NCBI GenBank assembly: GCA_033439295.1
Contig: JAVTLE010000013.1
Location: forward strand, 2,976,001 to 3,040,000
Direction: 5' to 3'
Length of the DNA: 64,000 bases
From: Deuterostichococcus epilithicus
Taxonomy: Eukaryota; Chlorophyta; Trebouxiophyceae; Prasiolales; Stichococcaceae
Made by a program: the position numbers and the translations under genes. Position 1 is the stretch's first letter. Each line of letters begins with the position of its first letter. A model generated the notes under the pieces. The model saw only the letters and a list, made by a program, of their open reading frames with translations, had not been told where the DNA came from and did not search any database. This document shows positions 8,601 through 18,800 of this stretch, in pieces.

Positions 8601-9596
8601 AGCTCCGTCCTGCGCGGCGGCGTCGTCCATCTCAGTCGGTCATCACGGCGTGCCTGCCGCTGCTGGTGCCGCTGCCGCTGCAGCTGCAGCAGCAGCACAC
8701 CGGCGGCGAGCGGCCTGGCGGGTTGCCTCAATGCCGCCGCCCACCGATGCGACTGTTTGCATAGCCTACGAGTAGCCCCCCACCGCGGTGTGCCTTCCAG
8801 TGGTCTAGTCGGGCCAGCCGCAGCCAGGCAACGGCCTGCTCCGCATGACCGCAGCTGCCACCCCGCTGCTCACACCCCTGTGTGCGCCCTCACACGATCA
8901 CACCCCCCTGGCTCACCAAGCGCTCCGAGGCACACGGGACACCATAAGCACCATGTGCACGCCAGACTGCCCTGCCAGTTTCCAGTTGCTTCACTTGCCT
9001 CTCCAGCAGCGGGTGCGTGGCTCGCAGCGGCCCCGCGACGCCAAGCGCGTCCAGGGCGCGGAAGGCGTTGCCCCACATCGCGATGGCAGAGCCCTCCAGC
9101 CGCAGCGAGGCGCCCCGCTCCAGCACCAGCACCAGGATGCCCACCTTTTGGGAAGAAAGGAAGTACCTCAACAGTCGGCAAAGCGACACCTTCTTCTGAA
9201 GATCTGTGCGTGCGCATCGGGCTCCATAGCAGGGTTGCGGCCATGCAGGAGCCCCGCTGCAGCCAAGGCCGTGCGCACGCGATGCGATGCGCACGCTGCA
9301 TCTGGGAAGGGCTTGCTGAGTTGCGGGGGACAGGGGCGCCAGTGCTGGTGTGTGCCATTCTGCAGCCGGGGGCAAACCCGCAGCACCATCACAAAGAGAT
9401 GCATGGATTGGTGCGACATTCCATCACATACAACCGCCGTGCCAACCTTGTGCAGGGCTGCGGCGGTGCAGAGGCCCGCGATGCCGGCGCCCGCAATGAT
9501 GACGCGCTGCTGCTCTGGGTCTGAGGCCGCATCCGACAACAGGACATGTTCCGCTGGCGCTGCTGCCGCCGCTGCAAGCACGGCGCCATCGTTCAA
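5657..9596 (-). CDS. FAD-dependent monooxygenase 1 (group A, zeaxanthin epoxidase/salicylate hydroxylase-like)
   Basis: A flavin monooxygenase of the PHBH-fold group, likely using NAD(P)H and O2; its substrate cannot be read. Exons in transcript order: 9447-9596 (FAD dinucleotide motif GAGIAGL), 8999-9144, 8441-8609 (FNFERD, RRSELLEAL), one or two uncertain exons at about 8.3 kb, about 7799-7980 (VVGADGARS, the DG motif), about 7432-7495 (GMYPISDSEMYW), about 7150-7210 (CFNAPED), about 6770-6880, about 6395-6490 (GD motif VLVGDAAHPMTPN), about 5957-6145 and 5657-5751, ending in TGA. The phase of the first three exons fits only if the second intron begins with GC (AG then GCAAGT). The start MNDGAV gives a short N-terminus without an obvious transit peptide. 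It is transcribed divergently from the repeat protein. All three FAD/NAD(P)H motifs are intact. Confidence 0.82.
7956..8215 (-). repeat. Duplicated splice-junction segment in FMO1
   Basis: The segment coding AVELDSGETLR (near 7956-7980) recurs about 229 bp upstream in the gene (8185-8210) as AVELDSGATLR. Only the downstream copy continues into the family's conserved VVGADG. The upstream copy looks like a decayed duplicate inside intron sequence or an extra exon. Confidence 0.6.
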
Positions 9597-10169
9597 ACTG
9601 GGTCTCTCGGCATCAAAGGCGGGTGCACGTGAAGATGCATTTCACACATGCATTTCACACATGCTTCTTGCCACAAACGTGCAGATGCAGCGCATGCTGC
9701 GACATGCTGTGGGTGTAGCGGCTGACCTGCAGTGACAAGCCGAGACGATCTGGGTCGCCGAGACCATCTTTCAGACCTTCGTGGCGCTCTACTGCCAGAG
9801 GAGTCTGCACGCGGTGCGATGCCACACGCATGCTGTGTGTATTGACACGGAGTGCATCGCAGTGCGCATCTGCCGCACAGCCGCAGCTGGGACTGCGCAG
9901 CGGAATCTTGGATACCGGGAAGTCTCATGGAGCCTCTAAACAAGCAAACCACACACAGGCAAGACCCCATCTTCTGTCAGTCACGCAGGGGCGGGCACCT
10001 GGTGCGAACCCGGGGGAGGGTTCAGCGCAGGCAGATCATCTGGATAGCGGCGAGATCGCTTCATGTACAGGCCCTGGCTCTATTCGATCGTCTTGTTGAC
10101 AGTCTGATACGAGCCGTTTGAATCCTTGTTCGGCGCAGTCCTGAACTTTAGCAGCTGCCGGCCGCCACC
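9597..10169. promoter_or_regulatory. Shared divergent promoter region of FMO1 and the repeat protein
   Basis: About 570 bp separate two divergent start codons. I see no coding exon and no clear TATA box. A short tandem duplication of TGCATTTCACACA lies near 9634-9662. A full vertebrate-style Kozak string (GCCGCCACC) precedes the ATG at 10170. Confidence 0.45.
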
Positions 10170-13100
10170 ATGAGCAGTCTGCTGGCGAGCCAGTGCCTAG
10201 CGGGCAAGCCTTTGCCCGTCGGCCCGCGCTCCGCAGCCAGCCGGGGCCGCGCAGCTTCCAGGAACATCTGCAGGGCAGAAACCTCAGAGTGAGCCGCTTT
10301 GCCGTCTCACTCATGCGGACGATGGCGGTCGCTGCACGTAGATGTCTGATGCGCAGCACGTTGATCTCTGAACGAGACGTCGCTCAATGCGCTCTTCGGA
10401 TGACGTTGCTGTGATAGATCGCTGGATATCGTTCGTCTCCTGAGTCGTAATTTTATCATGCATGATTTTCCGAACAGAATCTTGTAGGGGAGTGCAGCCG
10501 AGATCAGCATGTTGAGAAGCGCTCAAAAATTGCGATCTGAATGCGAACTTCAGATGTTTTCACCACTGAAGCAAGTCTGTAGCGCATATGCTCACATCCA
10601 GGACAGACCAGCCTCACAGCTGCACACGTCGCTTTGGGCGGCAGTGCATGGCTCTGTGGTGTGCGACCAGTCCAGCATCATGATTTCGTGCACGATATGA
10701 GAGATATGCCAAGCCTGATGGCAGCGGCGCCATGATTGCAGGCAACATGGTGGCATCATGTAGCACCGCCGACAAGCTGCTTGGCGCAAGCGTACGGGCT
10801 ACACGCGAGGCACCGAGGTGATTGCTGTCAGCTGCGATCGCTGACAGCAGCATCCTGCTGCGCCGCAGGGATGCGCCCCTGGACGGCCAGCGGTGGGGCG
10901 CGGCCGCGGTGGCGATCGGCCTGTCGGCGGCGCTGCTGGGCGGTGACATGGTGATGCCGCCGCCGCTGGAGGCCGCCCCCGTCGTCAACAAGTCCTCCGT
11001 CACCGATGAGCAGGCCAAGCTGGAGGAGCTCCTGGCAGGTATGGGCTGGGCGCACATGCCGCTGATGCATGTGCAGGGGCAGGACCTGCAAGGTATGTCA
11101 AGGCTGCGCCCCGCCTTGTGCTTGTGCTTGCGCTTGTGCTTGTGTGAAATGGTTCGGAACTTGTTGGCCTGTGTCGGCGATGGCGGCCACCTCTCTCGTC
11201 GGGATCAGCCGCAGTTCGTTGTAACATCTTCTCCACATCACTGCGGCGCAGGCAACGGCAAGGTGCTGGGCTCGGGGCGCAAGGAGGCAAAGGAGGCCAG
11301 TGCTCGCGCAGCGGGTGTGCCGGCATTCGGTATCAAGCCGCAGCGCGCGGCGCCAAAGCAGGTGCCCGGGCTGGAGGTGCCGGAGCCAAAAGCGGCGCTG
11401 CAGGCGACAAAGCAGGCTGTGACCAGCATCTCGAAGGCGGAGGTGGGTGGCACGTACCTCCTCGTGCATGAGGCAGGCGTCACAGGCTGGCCGCATGAGC
11501 GCGGCGCCAGCGTGCACACTGCCATGAAGAAAGACACCCCACCCCTGCGCATTTTGCGATGCTTTCTTCGTGCAGCACAAGTGAATGCCTGCCGCGCGCC
11601 TGCCATGGTGCAGCAGCTCTAAAATTCACCGTGTATCATGGTGGCAGCCAGAGGCTGGCCGCCCGCAGGCAGCACAGTGGCCGTCTGCTGAAATCGTCAG
11701 GTCGATGCCCTGGTCAGATGCCGTGTCCCCCCTCCCCTGCAGACGCCCAAGAAGCAGCTGCAGGGGCTGCAGAAGCAGGCGGAGAAGGCGGTAGACAAGG
11801 CAGCACCGGCTGCGGCAAAGGCGCTGCCAAAGGCCATCCCGACGCCGGGGCTGCCGAGGCAGGCGCAGAAGGCGGCAGACGCCGCCAAAGCCGCCGCACC
11901 CGCGGCGCCCAAGCTGCCGTACGGCATCCCCACCCCCGGCCTGCCCTCGAAGGTGCTGCTATGTGCCTGGCATATCAAAATTGGGTTGAATGCCAATCTG
12001 CCTGAAGCATGCTTGCAACGCGATGCCATGCTCGTCCAGCATGGCAGCATGGCACGCTCGACGCTCGAGCTCCACCTGCCAGCTGTGAGCCCAGTGTGTC
12101 CTCTGAAAACACTCCAGCGGCGATTAGGCCGTGCCGTCAGCAGCTGAGCATGCCAGATCGAGCCACACGACGCCCCGCCAGTGCCAGATTTCTGCCTCGC
12201 ATAGCAGCCACGCCCCGATTATCTGCCGCAGGCCGACGCCCAGAAGGTAGTTGACAGCGTGAAGGCTGCCGTGCCGGAGGCGCCCAAGCTGCCGCGCGGC
12301 GTGCCAACGCCTGGACTACAGCAGCAGGCGCAGAAAGCGCTGAATGCCGTGAAGGCCGCCGCGCCGGAGGCGCCCAAGCTGCCAAGCGGAGTGCCAACGC
12401 CGGGGCTGCAGCAGCAGGCGCAGAAGGCAGTGAATGCCGTCAAGGCCGCAGCGCCGGAGGCGCCTAAGCTGCCGACAGGCGTGCCAAAGCCGGGGCTGCA
12501 GCAGCAGGCGCAGAAAGCGCTGAATGCCGTCAAGTCTGCTGCGCCAGAGGCACCCAAGCTGCCGGGCGGCGTGCCAAAGCCGGGGCTGCAGCAGCAGGCG
12601 CAGAAGGCAGTGAATGCCGTCAAGGCCGCAGCGCCGGAGGCACCTAAGCTGCCGACAGGCGTGCCGACCCCTGGACTGCAGCAGCAGGCGCAGAAGACGG
12701 TGAATGCCGTCAAGGCCGCGGTGCCGAATGCGCCAAAGCTGCCGTCCAATATCCCAACGCCTGGACTTCCTAAGGTGAGCGGGCTCTTGGATACCTGGAA
12801 CAATGAGCCGGATACTACCTCTACGGGACATCGAAATGAGAGGCTGCAAAGCGAAGCGGGAATGAGGACCTGCTGTCCATTCTCGGTATGTCCTTGCGAG
12901 CATGTCTTCAAGAGTAGGCAGGCTGCTTTGCAGGATGCTCCCCAGATTACCAACCCCAAGACATTGCGGAAGTAATCCAGGGAGTAAAATGCGCAGGAAT
13001 GCATGCTAGGCATGGCTCACACGCTTCTGGGTGCTACACGCCTTCAAACGGAACACCACCGGTTGCGCTGCAGGCACCCGCACAGGCCAAGAAGCCTCTG

Positions 13101-14978
13101 CAGGGCCTGCAGAAGAAGGCAGACAGCGCTGCGTCGGCGGCTGCAAGGGCGCTGCCGAGCGGCGTGCCGAAGCCGGGGCTGCCGCAGAAGGCACAGCAGG
13201 CGGCCAAGGCGCCACTGGCGGGCCTGCGGAACAAGGCGCCAGAGCCCGCCGCGCCGCTGCAGCAGGTACGCCTCGTTCTGGTGACGGTGCAGTCCCGTCG
13301 TGCGAGGAAAAAACCTGCAGGCCTCAGGTTGGCGCCAGCGCCGCAGCAGGGTTCTGCAAATGTGTCGTCTGCCCTGCTGCTCTATCGGCACCCGCATGCA
13401 GGACCCCCAGCAGCGGGGCAGCTGGCCTTTGGTACTGGCCTACGATGGTCTGCCCAGCCAAGCGATTAGCTCGGGGCGCCGTCTGATGCGGCTGCATCCA
13501 GCCCCTCCGAAATGCGCGCAGCACGACTCATCATTGTGATCACGCCTCTGCCCGCAGGCGGCAGGGTCAGTGACGGCGGCAGCGGACGCGGTAACCAGCA
13601 CCGTGAGCAAGGCGCTGCAGGGCACCGGGCCCAAGGGTCTGGAGGTGCCGGTGCCAAAGTCTGTGGCGCGCGCCAACGCCACCAAGGTGAGGATTCTTTC
13701 TCTTCTGGGCGCTGCGTCAGGGATGTCATTGGGAGATGCGAAACGCACGTTGATGGTTACGCGGCAAGCGACAAGCCTCATGCGGAGCCCGCCTGCATGC
13801 ATTCATGTCCTGCACAAGGCGTCGTCGCCGCCATCGTGCACACGTGCAGGGTTCGCAGACAGCCCCGCATGCACGAACCCAGACCCGACTCCCACGTGTC
13901 GGCCTCTCTTGCTCCAGGCGGCGCAGGAGGCCGAGAAGGCAAAGGCCGAGGCGCAGAAGCAGGCGGAAAAGCAGGCCGCGGAAGCGAAAAAGGCGGCGGA
14001 GCGGCAGGCGGCGGAGGCCAAACGGGCTGCCGCCAACGGCAAGGCCGCCGTCAGCAGGGCACTGCCCTCGAATGTGCCGAAGCCGGGGCTGCCGGGCGGC
14101 AATGGTGAGGCTGCATGAGGCCCCTAGTTTCTCTGTCTCTCTGACATGTGCCCCGCCTTTGAGCTGCTTCTCGAGAGTGTTCTGTGATGCATAGTCAGCC
14201 GCGAAGGCCGGCACCGGCTGTACCAGGCTTGGGCTGGGCGCCAGTGCCACACGTTGGGAACAGCAGGAATGCAAGAGAACGTGAGGATTAAGCTGACCTC
14301 TATGTGCCGCTCCGCATGACGCTCAGGCAATGCGCTGGCTGGTGCGGCAGCGGCAGGCGCGGCTGCAGCGGGCGGCCTCACCAGCTCGGCGCAGGACGTT
14401 GCCTCCTCAGGTGTGTCGGTGTGTCGGGCTGTAGTGCTGTGGTATTCGTCCAGCTGCATGCACCGGTGCTTGCGTCCTGCAGCGACGGTGAAACATCAGA
14501 TTGCAGAGTAGGTAACTTCCTTGGCATGGTGCAGCGCATGTATTGTGGTAAATCATGTATCTCTGGGATTCAAAGCGCCACTGATTGCTTGGCGTTGAAT
14601 TTGCAGTATCGGCGCCATCTCTGTCGACTCCGTCGCTGCCATCAGTCGGGAAGCCGAGCCAGGGTGCCGCAACCCAGGTGCGCATTAAATAGCATGCACA
14701 TTCTTTTTCCGTCGGGAGAGCCAGCTTTGGCTTGTCACTGAACTAAGCTCTCAACCAGCCCCTGCCGAATTGCACTCTATTGGACTGGACCTGCTGTGAC
14801 CTGTCGCATGGTTGGTGTCTGCTGGGTGGCACAGGTGGCACCAAAGTGCACTGCCATGGCCTGTGTGCCGCCGTAGGCGGGTGCGGTGGTGGCGCTGGAG
14901 GTGCTGTTGGCGGCGGCGGCATCATCCTTCGTGGGTGGCCTGACCAAGGAGCGCAAGGATCTCAAGCGCCGCGCCTGA
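10170..14978 (+). CDS. Plastid-targeted protein with 30-residue Pro/Ala/Lys tandem repeats (novel)
   Basis: No family recognised. Eleven exons join with every splice phase consistent: 10170-10288, 10869-11038, 11252-11442, 11743-11952, 12232-12774, 13074-13265, 13558-13686, 13918-14104, 14327-14410, 14607-14677 and 14877-14978. This gives 1998 nt and 665 residues. The first ~40 residues are Ser/Ala/Arg-rich, like a chloroplast transit peptide. Exon 2 then has a hydrophobic stretch (GAAAVAIGLSAALLGG) ending near LEAAP, like a thylakoid-transfer or membrane segment. The middle holds ten copies of [GN][VI]P[TK]PGL spaced by Ala/Gln/Lys helices; exon 5 alone has five exact 30-residue units (QQQAQKAVNAVKAAAPEAP type). 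Exon 8 is a charged Ala/Lys/Glu coiled coil. The last exon is a hydrophobic helix (VVALEVLLAAAASSFVGG) followed by a basic tail, suggesting membrane anchoring. The protein is basic, with almost no aromatic residues. A LEA-like or H1-like protein is possible; a plastid scaffold or linker is my inference. Confidence 0.85.
10823..10849 (+). other. Perfect 10-bp stem-loop just upstream of a 3' splice site
   Basis: TGCTGTCAGC, a 7-nt loop, then GCTGACAGCA form a perfect inverted repeat. It ends 19 nt before the AG (10867-10868) of intron 1 of the repeat protein, where the branch point or pyrimidine tract would lie. Confidence 0.85.
12270..12774 (+). repeat. 90-bp coding tandem repeat with 180-bp higher-order unit
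   Basis: The CCCAAGCTGCC-type segment recurs at exactly 90-bp steps (near 12279, 12369, 12459, 12549, 12639 and 12729). Neighbouring units alternate between AAAGCGCTGAATGCC and AAGGCAGTGAATGCC. Units two apart are therefore more alike than adjacent ones, which marks a dimeric 180-bp repeat and recent unequal exchange. All units stay in frame. Confidence 0.92.
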
Positions 14979-15828: not shown

Positions 15829-18800
15829 CTACACGCCGGCGTCTTCCGGGTAGGGGGCTGCATCGGGCTGCGTGCGGATGCGCAGGTAGGGGTACGCCGC
15901 GAAGCGCGCCGCAAAACCCAGGCTGCCGCCGAGGCCGCAGCCCGCCAGGCTCAGAAGGCGCAGGGAGGCAACGCCCGACAAGGATGCTAGGATGCCCCTG
16001 CGGAGCCACGGCATGGCTGTTGTGGATTCCTCTCAGCTGGTACGAAGGGGCGAGCGGGAAGGTGCGATGCTTGAGGGGAAGGGCAACGAACCCGGCTTTC
16101 TGTGCCCCAAGCTGCGTGCTGAGGTTCGTGCCCCCCGGACAGCTGTGCAGGTGACTGCAGAATTCAGAAACTGCTGACAGCACAGGAGTCGCCGGCCCTC
16201 GCGAGGTTCGGCGCAGAACGCATGCGCAAGACACATGCACAAAGGGTCAGCAAAACCCTGCCACGCATCGCCGTGGGCCTGACACGATGTGAATAGTGCC
16301 AATCATGACAGAGTGCCGGCTGAGGTCTCAACCAGCACGCCCTCGCAGCGCGAGCGTTCACCAAACCCCACCCCCTGAAACCAGCGTCGCAGCGCACCTC
16401 TCGGTCAGGCCAGCATTGCCGTCCAGGTGCAGGCTGCGCAGCCGTGGCAGCACCGCAGCGTGCCGCAGCAGCGCGTCTGGCAGCGCCGAGCCGCGCCTCG
16501 AGATATCGGAGCCCGGCAGTGAAAGCTCCGTCAGGCGCTGCACGGCACGGGGGCAGGGATCGGGGGTGCGACAGCCAGCGAAGCCTGGGACCAGGCAGCG
16601 CGGCTGTCACGAGCAGGAGGCCTGGAATCCCAGAGGCGTGGATGCCGCTGCATAGACGCATGCATGAGGCTGGGCAGATTTAAAAGCCTGGCGGCTCTGT
16701 GCAGCTGCAGTGTTGTGCACGTGCTGACGCCAGCTGAGCGGTGCCGGGCAGCTTGCTGGCCCTGCACGAGATTGCAGTCGTGCAGACGCAACTGCAGGCC
16801 TCATCGCAGCCGAGCCTACTGCCCTGCGCATGGGACAAGCTGTCTTTTGACGCAGAATCGCCACGAGCGCCGGCCCCAGGTCGGAGATGCCGGAGCCTTC
16901 GCTGCCTGCCTGACCCGTCCAGCCACTGCCACTTGCTGTGCACCCAGATCGACCACACCGGCCAGTTGTACGCATCGCACCTGCAGCCTCGGCAGCGTGG
17001 CGGACAGCGACCGGTGCGCGGCGCGGTGGGCCTCCGAGTCTGCCAGCAGCGTCGGCACCTGCAGCTGCAGCCGCAGCGCCCGCAGCCGCGGCAGCCCCTC
17101 CAGCGGCGCCAGGCTGCCGACTGTGACCTGCGGCCCGGCGTTGACAAGACAGCTGACGGCCATGGCCCGTCTCAGGTGGGCCGCCAGCGAACGGCAGAGC
17201 AGCGCAGCGCTGTGGCGGCGGGGGTTGCGTCGAGAGCATGTCATGACGAGCTGGCCCGGGGCGCCGCCTCTGACTTCCCCCGCCGTTGCCGACGCTGCAG
17301 TTGGAACCATACACCGCCGCGCGAGGTGTTGCCAGAGGCTGCAGTCCGAAGGATGCGCCGCCGCATGAGGCGTCGCCAGCAAGTGACAAGACTTGGGGTT
17401 TGAAGTCCAGGATACAAAAACCCTAAACCCTGAGCCGTGATGCGCACACACCTGGTGCAGGCTGACCGCCAGGCGCGTCAGCTTCGTCGCGCCGCCCAGC
17501 GCCTCCAGCAGGGGCCCTGCGGAGCGGCTGCAGAAGCCCAGGTCCAGATCCCGCAGCCGCGGCAGGGCCGCCAGCGCGGCGACCGCGGTGGTGGACACGC
17601 TCGGCGGCAGCGCCACTGCCAGCGTCTCCAGCCGCGTGAGGCGCCGGGCGATCGACTCCACGGACCTGCGGCGGCAGAGGGCTGCTCGGCGGTGAGCGCA
17701 GCAGTCCAGGCCGGGTGAAGCGCGCACCCACCGAATCCACCCACCCCACATCATTGCGCAGGCTCGCGGTGCAGGCGAGCCGAGGTCCACTCGTGGAGGC
17801 GCCAGCAGCTGGTGAGCAGTCCAGCCTGATTGGTGCGCTGAAGGATTAGAGGAAGCCTGCAGCCAGGCCAGGGTGACGGGCTGCAACGACACTGCGATGC
17901 TGCCAGGACGGTTCGGGCAGGCACGCGCTGTCAGGCCGCCAGTCGGGCATGGAGAACGAGGTGTCAGGTCGTCACGGTGAGGGTTTAAGGGGTCACAAAT
18001 CGCACGTTGTGGTTGCGGCGGTGCTGCAGCCGCGGCCGAGGTTCAGCGTCGTCAGCCCCGGCGAGTTTGCCGCTATTGCATCCACCGCCGCCGCCGTCAG
18101 GGCGCCGTTCCGGCTGACGTCCAGCCGCCGCACCCGGTGCCAGCCGGCGACCGCAGCGCTCAGGCCCTCGGTGGTCAGCTCTGCCTGAATGGAGATGAGT
18201 TCAGCACATAGGGGTGCGTCCGGGGCTGGCTCTAGCGCCCGGCTCCAGCAGCGAGCGCATGGTCACAGCATCCAGGCCGGGCAGCTGCGGCGTGGCACAA
18301 CATGCTGGCCGGCATCAAGGCAGCCGTCTCACGGGCACCGGCAACGTCGTGGCGGGGGCTCTGCGACTGAAGCAAACAGCCAGCACGCGCTGCCCTTGCT
18401 GCTCATGTCCGCCTGCACGACCTGGTCAACCCCAAGGGGGGTGTCGAAGAACACTCACATGCGACAGGTCGACGGCCGTGAGGGCGGTGAGCGCAGACAG
18501 GCGGCCTGCGGCGCTCGCGGTCAGCCCAATCGCGTCGGGCACCCTGAGATGCTGCAGCCCCGACAGGCCCGCTAGCAGCAGCAGCTGCCCGTCCTCTGCA
18601 CGGAGCAGTTCAAGCGGGACGGTCACATGCAATGGCATCAACAACAGGCTTGGCGTGGGGGGGCATGCACCCTCATTCGCCAAGTCAATGAGGGCATGCG
18701 TCTCCGATCTCCCCTGGCGCTCTGCCGGAGCTGCCCGCTGAGCAGCAGCGGCCGCGGCCGCGCCAGCGGCAGCGGCGACTGCGCCAGCGCCGGCCGCGCA

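What the first reader, a model, noticed from the sequence alone, without database searches (positions are those of the whole stretch)
10170..14978. Undescribed plastid repeat protein with scaffold/linker architecture
Seen: an 11-exon model with all phases consistent gives a 665-residue protein with a transit-like N-terminus, a hydrophobic segment after it, ten [GN][VI]P[TK]PGL motifs separated by short Ala/Gln/Lys helices, a charged coiled-coil part and a C-terminal membrane helix with a basic tail. Known: green-algal pyrenoid linkers such as EPYC1 are basic, plastid-targeted, largely disordered proteins made of repeated short helices joined by Pro-rich spacers. Inference: this could be a membrane-tethered plastid scaffold, perhaps binding Rubisco or another oligomer through its regularly spaced helices. 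It lacks the WR/WK Rubisco-binding motif described in Chlamydomonas, so a different partner or a stress (LEA-like) role is equally open.
Basis: partly seen in the sequence, partly recalled or inferred. Interest (0 to 1): 0.85.

Follow-up and report, generated by a model that had tools for sequence, protein, structure and literature searches.

The report
Orphan algal plastid membrane repeat protein
A green alga carries a selectively constrained gene for what looks like a plastid membrane protein built from ten similar repeats; it resembles a multivalent scaffold, but nothing found here shows that it binds Rubisco, and no relative turned up in the collections searched.

Summary
Eleven GT-AG exons (10170-14978, +) give a 665-residue basic protein with ten P[TK]PGL motifs, mostly 30 residues apart, two hydrophobic segments and a basic tail. 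Differences among the five core units fall mainly at synonymous sites (dN/dS 0.06-0.38), so the protein is under constraint. AlphaFold2 models exon 5 as helices alternating with Pro-rich spacers, at low confidence. Plastid targeting is supported by comparison with RbcS, PsbO and a PsbP-like gene of the same genome. No second copy and no significant relative were found in its genome, Pfam, NCBIfam, PDB, or (exon 5 only) viral and prokaryotic contigs. The Rubisco-linker reading is not supported: four aromatic residues, none in a repeat helix, and no W[RK]; a lumen-type segment after the transit peptide and a basic C-terminal tail make lumen-facing repeats somewhat likelier than stromal ones (inference). 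No LEA family matched. Best reading: a membrane-anchored plastid scaffold whose cationic amphipathic helices bind weakly and repeatedly to an acidic surface (lipid or protein). The partner is unknown.

The parts
10170..10288 (+). exon 1: start codon and putative chloroplast transit peptide (MSSLL...NICRA|ETS)
   Evidence: ICRA|E resembles PsbO VCQA|G and PsbP-like VCSA|E of the same genome (cleavage points are my reading)
10869..11038 (+). exon 2: hydrophobic segment (about residues 50-66) and start of the non-repeat linker
   Evidence: hydropathy
11252..11442 (+). exon 3: non-repeat, charge-mixed linker
   Evidence: no second copy in own genome
11743..11952 (+). exon 4: PGL motifs 1-2 with diverged helices
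12232..12774 (+). exon 5: PGL motifs 3-8; core array of 90-nt (30-aa) units
13074..13265 (+). exon 6: PGL motif 9 and diverged helices
13558..13686 (+). exon 7: Ala/Ser/Thr/Val-rich linker
13918..14104 (+). exon 8: Ala/Glu/Lys/Gln-rich long helix followed by PGL motif 10
   Evidence: AlphaFold2 helix over residues 2-48 of the exon, mean pLDDT 75.7
14327..14410 (+). exon 9: Ala/Gly-rich linker
   Evidence: not supported by codon bias
14607..14677 (+). exon 10: Ser/Pro-rich linker
   Evidence: not supported by codon bias
14877..14978 (+). exon 11: C-terminal hydrophobic segment and basic tail KERKDLKRRA, stop codon

Best explanation
A nuclear gene of a green alga makes a plastid-imported protein that is held in a plastid membrane (thylakoid most likely) by a C-terminal segment with a basic tail, and perhaps also by an N-terminal one. 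Between them lies a basic stretch with ten helix / Pro-Gly-Leu units and one long charged helix. Each unit offers a weak, cationic, amphipathic helix; many such helices on one anchored chain bind repeatedly to an acidic surface (anionic thylakoid lipid or an acidic protein complex) and so coat, space or gather it. Shown: coding repeats and constraint. Supported by prediction: plastid import, helices, membrane segments. Inferred: side of the membrane, partner, and the scaffold action.
For: Gene model and constraint. Periodic helix/spacer prediction for exon 5 and a 47-residue helix in exon 8. Helix moments of 0.33-0.41 exceed composition shuffles in 7 of 8 helices that I picked by eye (fraction of shuffles reaching the value 0.001-0.015; the eighth 0.114), net charge +1 to +4. 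A HeliQuest-type discriminant (formula and cut-offs recalled) gives 1.00-1.04 for four core helices, in its 'possible lipid binding' band. Net charge +44 and pI 10.3 for residues 79-632. Cleavage-like motif and following hydrophobic segment like those of PsbO and a PsbP-like protein in the same genome, unlike RbcS. C-terminal tail net +4 against +1 on the other side of that segment.
Against: No experiment, transcript or homologue. The single-sequence model of exon 5 has mean pLDDT 58 and pTM 0.17. A charge-hydropathy plot puts only 3 of 10 segments on the disordered side (residues 37-48, 521-580 and the tail); the repeats lie on the border (0.451 against 0.450). The first hydrophobic segment has no clean A-x-A site, and its acidic N side (-3) would, if uncleaved, favour the opposite orientation. 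Ala-rich faces make membrane binding weak at best.
Confidence: 0.4

Rival explanations
1. Membrane-tethered pyrenoid linker: the repeats face the stroma and bind Rubisco, joining Rubisco to plastid membranes, by a binding mode different from EPYC1 and CsLinker.
For: The 30-residue spacing lies in the 20-120 range used by FLIPPer, the repeats are basic and predicted helical, and green linkers evolved convergently with little sequence conservation (PMC11570498, sections read). The genome holds rbcL and RbcS, and the four RbcL residues named for CsLinker contact are present. One exact coding pattern for F-[LFIM]-E-[RS]-K, taken from the CsLinker helix, gave 37 scattered hits in the genome, none closer together than about 12 kb, so no CsLinker-type linker is seen and the linker of this alga, if any, is not accounted for. 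MITH1 acts at pyrenoid membranes without a detectable Rubisco-binding motif (PMC11649565, passages).
Against: No aromatic in any repeat helix, no W[RK]. Two hydrophobic segments; the topology signs lean towards the lumen. The LCIB family gave no hit in the genome, but its control rang in 0 of 14 genomes, so this is weak. Whether this alga has a pyrenoid is unknown.
Confidence: 0.1
2. LEA/COR15-like stress protein: disordered in water, helical on drying or freezing, stabilising plastid membranes or enzymes.
For: [quoted passage not shown] its plastid location recalled).
Against: No LEA family among Pfam hits up to E = 1; a loose 11-mer-like pattern matches once; GRAVY only -0.39 for residues 79-632; two hydrophobic segments and Pro-Gly-Leu breaks every 30 residues are not LEA features (recalled).
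Confidence: 0.2
3. Two-ended membrane bridge: the hydrophobic segments sit in different membranes (or facing thylakoid sheets) and the repeat chain is an adjustable spacer between them, as TolA spans a periplasm (recalled).
For: Hydrophobic segments near both ends, with about 560 residues between; long exon 8 helix.
Against: The N-terminal segment may be a cleaved lumen signal; no evidence for two different membranes.
Confidence: 0.1
4. Little-constrained low-complexity spacer that grew by repeat slippage, with function only in the ends.
For: Core units 2 and 4 are nearly identical (dS 0.042), a sign of recent duplication or conversion.
Against: dN/dS below 0.4 in all 10 unit comparisons, while the other nine pairs are at dS 0.36-0.76.
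Confidence: 0.1

Closest known systems
CsLinker of Chlorella sorokiniana and EPYC1 of Chlamydomonas (pyrenoid Rubisco linkers)
   Same: Plastid-targeted repeat proteins with short helices at regular spacing in a flexible chain (CsLinker: PMC11570498, sections read; EPYC1 details partly recalled)
   Different: Here the helices lack aromatic and paired Arg-Lys binding residues, the unit is 30 residues, and two hydrophobic segments are present
COR15A (chloroplast LEA protein of Arabidopsis)
   Same: Helix-forming flexible protein that stabilises membranes (PMC11043620, abstract seen); Ala/Lys-rich and plastid (recalled)
   Different: No LEA match; hydrophobic segments; Pro-Gly-Leu spacers; ten units
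SAGA1 / MITH1 (proteins of pyrenoid-traversing membranes, Chlamydomonas)
   Same: Plastid proteins acting at membranes next to the Rubisco matrix (PMC11649565, passages seen)
   Different: Sequence relation not tested; SAGA1 carries Rubisco-binding motifs, which are absent here; MITH1 has none detectable
TolA-type and PEND-type anchored helical or repeat proteins (recalled only)
   Same: Membrane anchor plus long helical or repeated part
   Different: No such family among Pfam hits up to E = 1

Membership tests
Pyrenoid Rubisco linker (EPYC1/CsLinker kind) | chloroplast transit peptide | tested here: met
   NICRA|E has the form of the presequences of PsbO and a PsbP-like gene of the same genome; comparison by eye, no TargetP
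Pyrenoid Rubisco linker (EPYC1/CsLinker kind) | repeated structured elements spaced 20-120 residues apart (FLIPPer) | tested here: met
   30-residue period; exon 5 model has six helices of 9, 16, 15, 15, 15 and 20 residues, low confidence
Pyrenoid Rubisco linker (EPYC1/CsLinker kind) | largely disordered | tested here: inconclusive
   mean pLDDT 58 in a single-sequence model; charge-hydropathy puts 3 of 10 segments on the disordered side and the repeats on the border; no disorder predictor was run
Pyrenoid Rubisco linker (EPYC1/CsLinker kind) | Rubisco-contact residues in the helices (Trp-Arg/Lys in EPYC1, recalled; Phe and Arg-Lys in CsLinker) | tested here: not met
   aromatics only W49, F122, Y220, F650; no W[RK], no F[LM].[RK]; one F..[RK] at 122 outside the repeats
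Pyrenoid Rubisco linker (EPYC1/CsLinker kind) | binds and condenses Rubisco | not testable with these tools
   needs protein
LEA proteins | match to a LEA Pfam family | tested here: not met
   none among Pfam hits up to E = 1
LEA proteins | tandem 11-mer motif (LEA_4 type, form recalled) | tested here: not met
   one match of a loose pattern at residue 180, no tandem series
LEA proteins | induction by drying or cold | not testable with these tools
   no expression data
Thylakoid lumen-facing membrane protein | bipartite presequence: plastid cleavage motif, then a hydrophobic segment | tested here: met
   best 15-residue hydropathy 1.93 against 1.57 (PsbO, exon end chosen by eye), 1.94 (PsbP-like) and 0.43 (RbcS); three comparison genes only
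Thylakoid lumen-facing membrane protein | clean A-x-A processing site | tested here: inconclusive
   PPPLEA|AP is possible but not typical (sequence read)

The most novel reading that the evidence does not exclude
A new kind of plastid scaffold: a membrane-anchored chain of ten helix/PGL stickers that gathers an acidic partner (a lumenal complex, anionic lipid, or Rubisco by an aromatic-free binding mode) into an ordered or condensed layer at the thylakoid, evolved in one algal lineage independently of EPYC1, CsLinker and LEA proteins.
Probability: 0.2. Interest if true: 0.75.

Novelty: new variant of a known kind. Interest (0 to 1): 0.42.

Why it matters
Known green-algal linkers share physical design but little sequence (PMC11570498, sections read), so homology searches can miss such proteins. 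If this one is a membrane-bound multivalent scaffold it would add a member with a different sticker (cationic, aromatic-free) and a built-in anchor, testable with one tag and one pull-down. If the repeats are in the lumen, it would be an unusual long basic repeat protein for that compartment (from general knowledge).

Tried and rejected
Homologue searches. Pfam up to E = 1 gave three weak matches far below cut-off (DJ-1_PfpI, Diphtheria_T, ATG14), taken as chance; PDB none up to E = 1; NCBIfam none up to E = 1. With exon 5 only (181 of 665 residues), viral contigs gave 18 pattern matches and prokaryotic contigs 131, 0 confirmed in either. No eukaryotic protein collection was searched, so 'orphan' means only absent from these. 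In its own genome, the repeats, exons 2-3 and exons 10-11 found only this locus at significant E; the two further hits had E 1.07 and 3.26 (the tool scores only its best candidates and searches exon by exon).

Considered and set aside. Histone-H1-like DNA binding: no SPKK or KPK, but one [ST]PK[RK] match at residue 161, too little to build on. Rubisco binding by the known modes. A structure search with the exon 5 model was not run because its confidence is too low. RbcL scores 1072 bits to 8q04 (Chlorella sorokiniana) and 1069 to 1gk8 (Chlamydomonas, recalled), so the host is probably a green alga outside both genera. Of nine PsbP-family matches I looked at two loci for presequences; L020 showed one, L019 did not.

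Papers. PMC11570498: outline, sections 6, 8, 11 and 14, and passages. PMC11649565 and PMC11565738: passages. PMC11043620: abstract and outline. All others: search listings only. The searches for CsLinker, Trebouxiophyceae linkers, Chlorella LEA/hiC6, lumenal repeat proteins, Pro-rich repeat plastid proteins and FLIPPer listed no paper whose title or abstract start describes this protein; the library is openly licensed PMC only. The paper on the Rubisco-binding motif (Meyer 2020) was not held; its motif is recalled.
Full report
Observation. I rebuilt the gene from the DNA, choosing splice sites by eye. Eleven exons between 10170 and 14978 on the + strand, with all 10 introns GT...AG and consistent phases, give 665 residues, pI 10.27, 65.7 kDa, 24% Ala, 12% Pro, 10% Lys. 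In 10,000 shuffles of the protein the motif never occurred more than once, and the ten P[TK]PGL matches in the six-frame translation of the whole window all lie in this gene.

Is it a real, constrained protein? Over the 10 pairwise comparisons of the five core units the differences fall 33, 20 and 96 on codon positions 1, 2 and 3. dN/dS is 0.06-0.38 in 10 of 10, with dS 0.36-0.76 in nine and 0.042 between units 2 and 4, which look like a recent duplication or conversion. Exchange among repeats can distort such values, but I see no way for it to make a synonymous excess. GC at codon position 3 is 0.67-0.93 per exon against intron GC of 0.58; exons 9 and 10 lack the usual excess at position 3, so these two rest on phase and splice sites alone. 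Transcripts are not available; introns 2 and 7 would keep the frame if retained.

Where does it go? The window is in contig C11 of a 46.8-Mb, 21-contig genome that carries rbcL on contig C21 and RbcS exons. RbcL scores 1072 bits to Chlorella sorokiniana 8q04 and 1069 to 1gk8 (Chlamydomonas, recalled), so the host is a green alga. I read presequences of three plastid proteins of the same genome: RbcS ...AVTKA|MQV, PsbO ...LVCQA|GLKQ and a PsbP-like protein ...AVCSA|EPHR; the cleavage points are my reading. A second PsbP-family locus (L019) showed no presequence. The present protein has ...NICRA|ETSED, the same form. The next segment has a best 15-residue hydropathy of 1.93, against 1.57 (PsbO, exon end chosen by eye), 1.94 (PsbP-like) and 0.43 (RbcS). 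So plastid import is likely, and a lumen-type signal or N-terminal membrane anchor is plausible. The processing site is not a clean A-x-A.

Topology. The C-terminal segment has +1 on its N side and +4 in the tail, which by the positive-inside rule puts the tail in the stroma and the repeats in the lumen. The N-terminal segment gives no clear sign: -3 before it, 0 or -3 after it (15 or 30 residues), and if uncleaved its acidic N side would favour the opposite orientation. I hold the lumen side at about 60%, which is a judgement.

What do the repeats look like? AlphaFold2 on exon 5 alone gives six helices of 9, 16, 15, 15, 15 and 20 residues, separated by 14-15 residues, at mean pLDDT 58 and pTM 0.17; on exon 8 one helix of 47 residues at mean pLDDT 75.7. 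Seven of eight repeat helices, picked by eye, are more amphipathic than all but 0.1-1.5% of their shuffles; the eighth is not (11%). The hydrophobic face is mainly Ala with Leu/Val, the polar face Gln/Lys/Asn. A HeliQuest-type score of 1.00-1.04 for four core helices is in a 'possible' band (formula and bands recalled). A charge-hydropathy plot puts 3 of 10 segments on the disordered side and the repeats on the border (0.451 against 0.450), so disorder is not clearly shown.

Is it a Rubisco linker? FLIPPer, which found CsLinker, asks for a largely disordered protein with repeated structured elements 20-120 residues apart (PMC11570498, section read), and filters for interacting residues (section read). 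The spacing is met. The binding residues are not: CsLinker uses Phe173, Arg176 and Lys177, EPYC1 a Trp-Arg/Lys motif (recalled). Here the four aromatics are W49, F122, Y220 and F650, none in a repeat helix; one F..[RK] (FGIK at 122) lies in the non-repeat linker. If the repeats are in the lumen they cannot meet Rubisco. For the other side: linkers converge without sequence similarity; the four RbcL residues named for CsLinker contact are present here; MITH1 works at pyrenoid membranes without a detectable Rubisco-binding motif (PMC11649565, passages); and one exact coding pattern for F-[LFIM]-E-[RS]-K gave 37 scattered genome hits (20 forward, 17 reverse; control 14 and 13), none closer together than about 12 kb, so no CsLinker-type gene is seen. 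LCIB was not found, but its control rang in none of 14 genomes. I give the linker reading 10%.

Is it a LEA protein? No LEA family among Pfam hits to E = 1, one match of a loose 11-mer pattern and moderate hydrophilicity (GRAVY -0.39). COR15A stabilises membranes through its secondary structure (PMC11043620, abstract), so LEA-like action stays possible at 20%.

Relatives. Pfam gave three weak matches below cut-off, NCBIfam and PDB none; viral and prokaryotic contigs gave none with exon 5. In its own genome no second copy was found with the repeats, exons 2-3 or exons 10-11. Eukaryotic proteomes could not be searched, so how lineage-restricted it is remains open.

Conclusion. The best-supported reading is a plastid membrane-anchored, basic, multivalent repeat scaffold that binds an acidic surface weakly and many times; Rubisco is a possible but not favoured partner.

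Noticed in passing
window 9168-9641, - strand: An open frame with a GAGIAGL dinucleotide-binding fingerprint lies head to head about 500 bases upstream; Pfam DAO (FAD oxidoreductase) at E 0.0029, below cut-off. Possibly a shared promoter region.
   Followed up: partly
window 12394-12483 and 12574-12663: Core units 2 and 4 are nearly identical in DNA (dS 0.042) while the other nine pairs are at 0.36-0.76: a recent duplication or conversion.
   Followed up: yes
window 16164-16679, - strand: A frame whose region reads by eye like leucine-rich repeats (best in 16358-16606); Pfam gave no match for either stretch.
   Followed up: partly
own genome G000: No LCIB-family match in a green algal genome that has RbcL and RbcS; the control rang in 0 of 14 genomes, so absence is not shown.
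   Followed up: no
own genome G000:C19:3155114-3155867, - strand: Three matches to the C-terminal part of the PsbP family lie within 800 bases of each other, perhaps a repeated or multi-copy PsbP-like gene.
   Followed up: no
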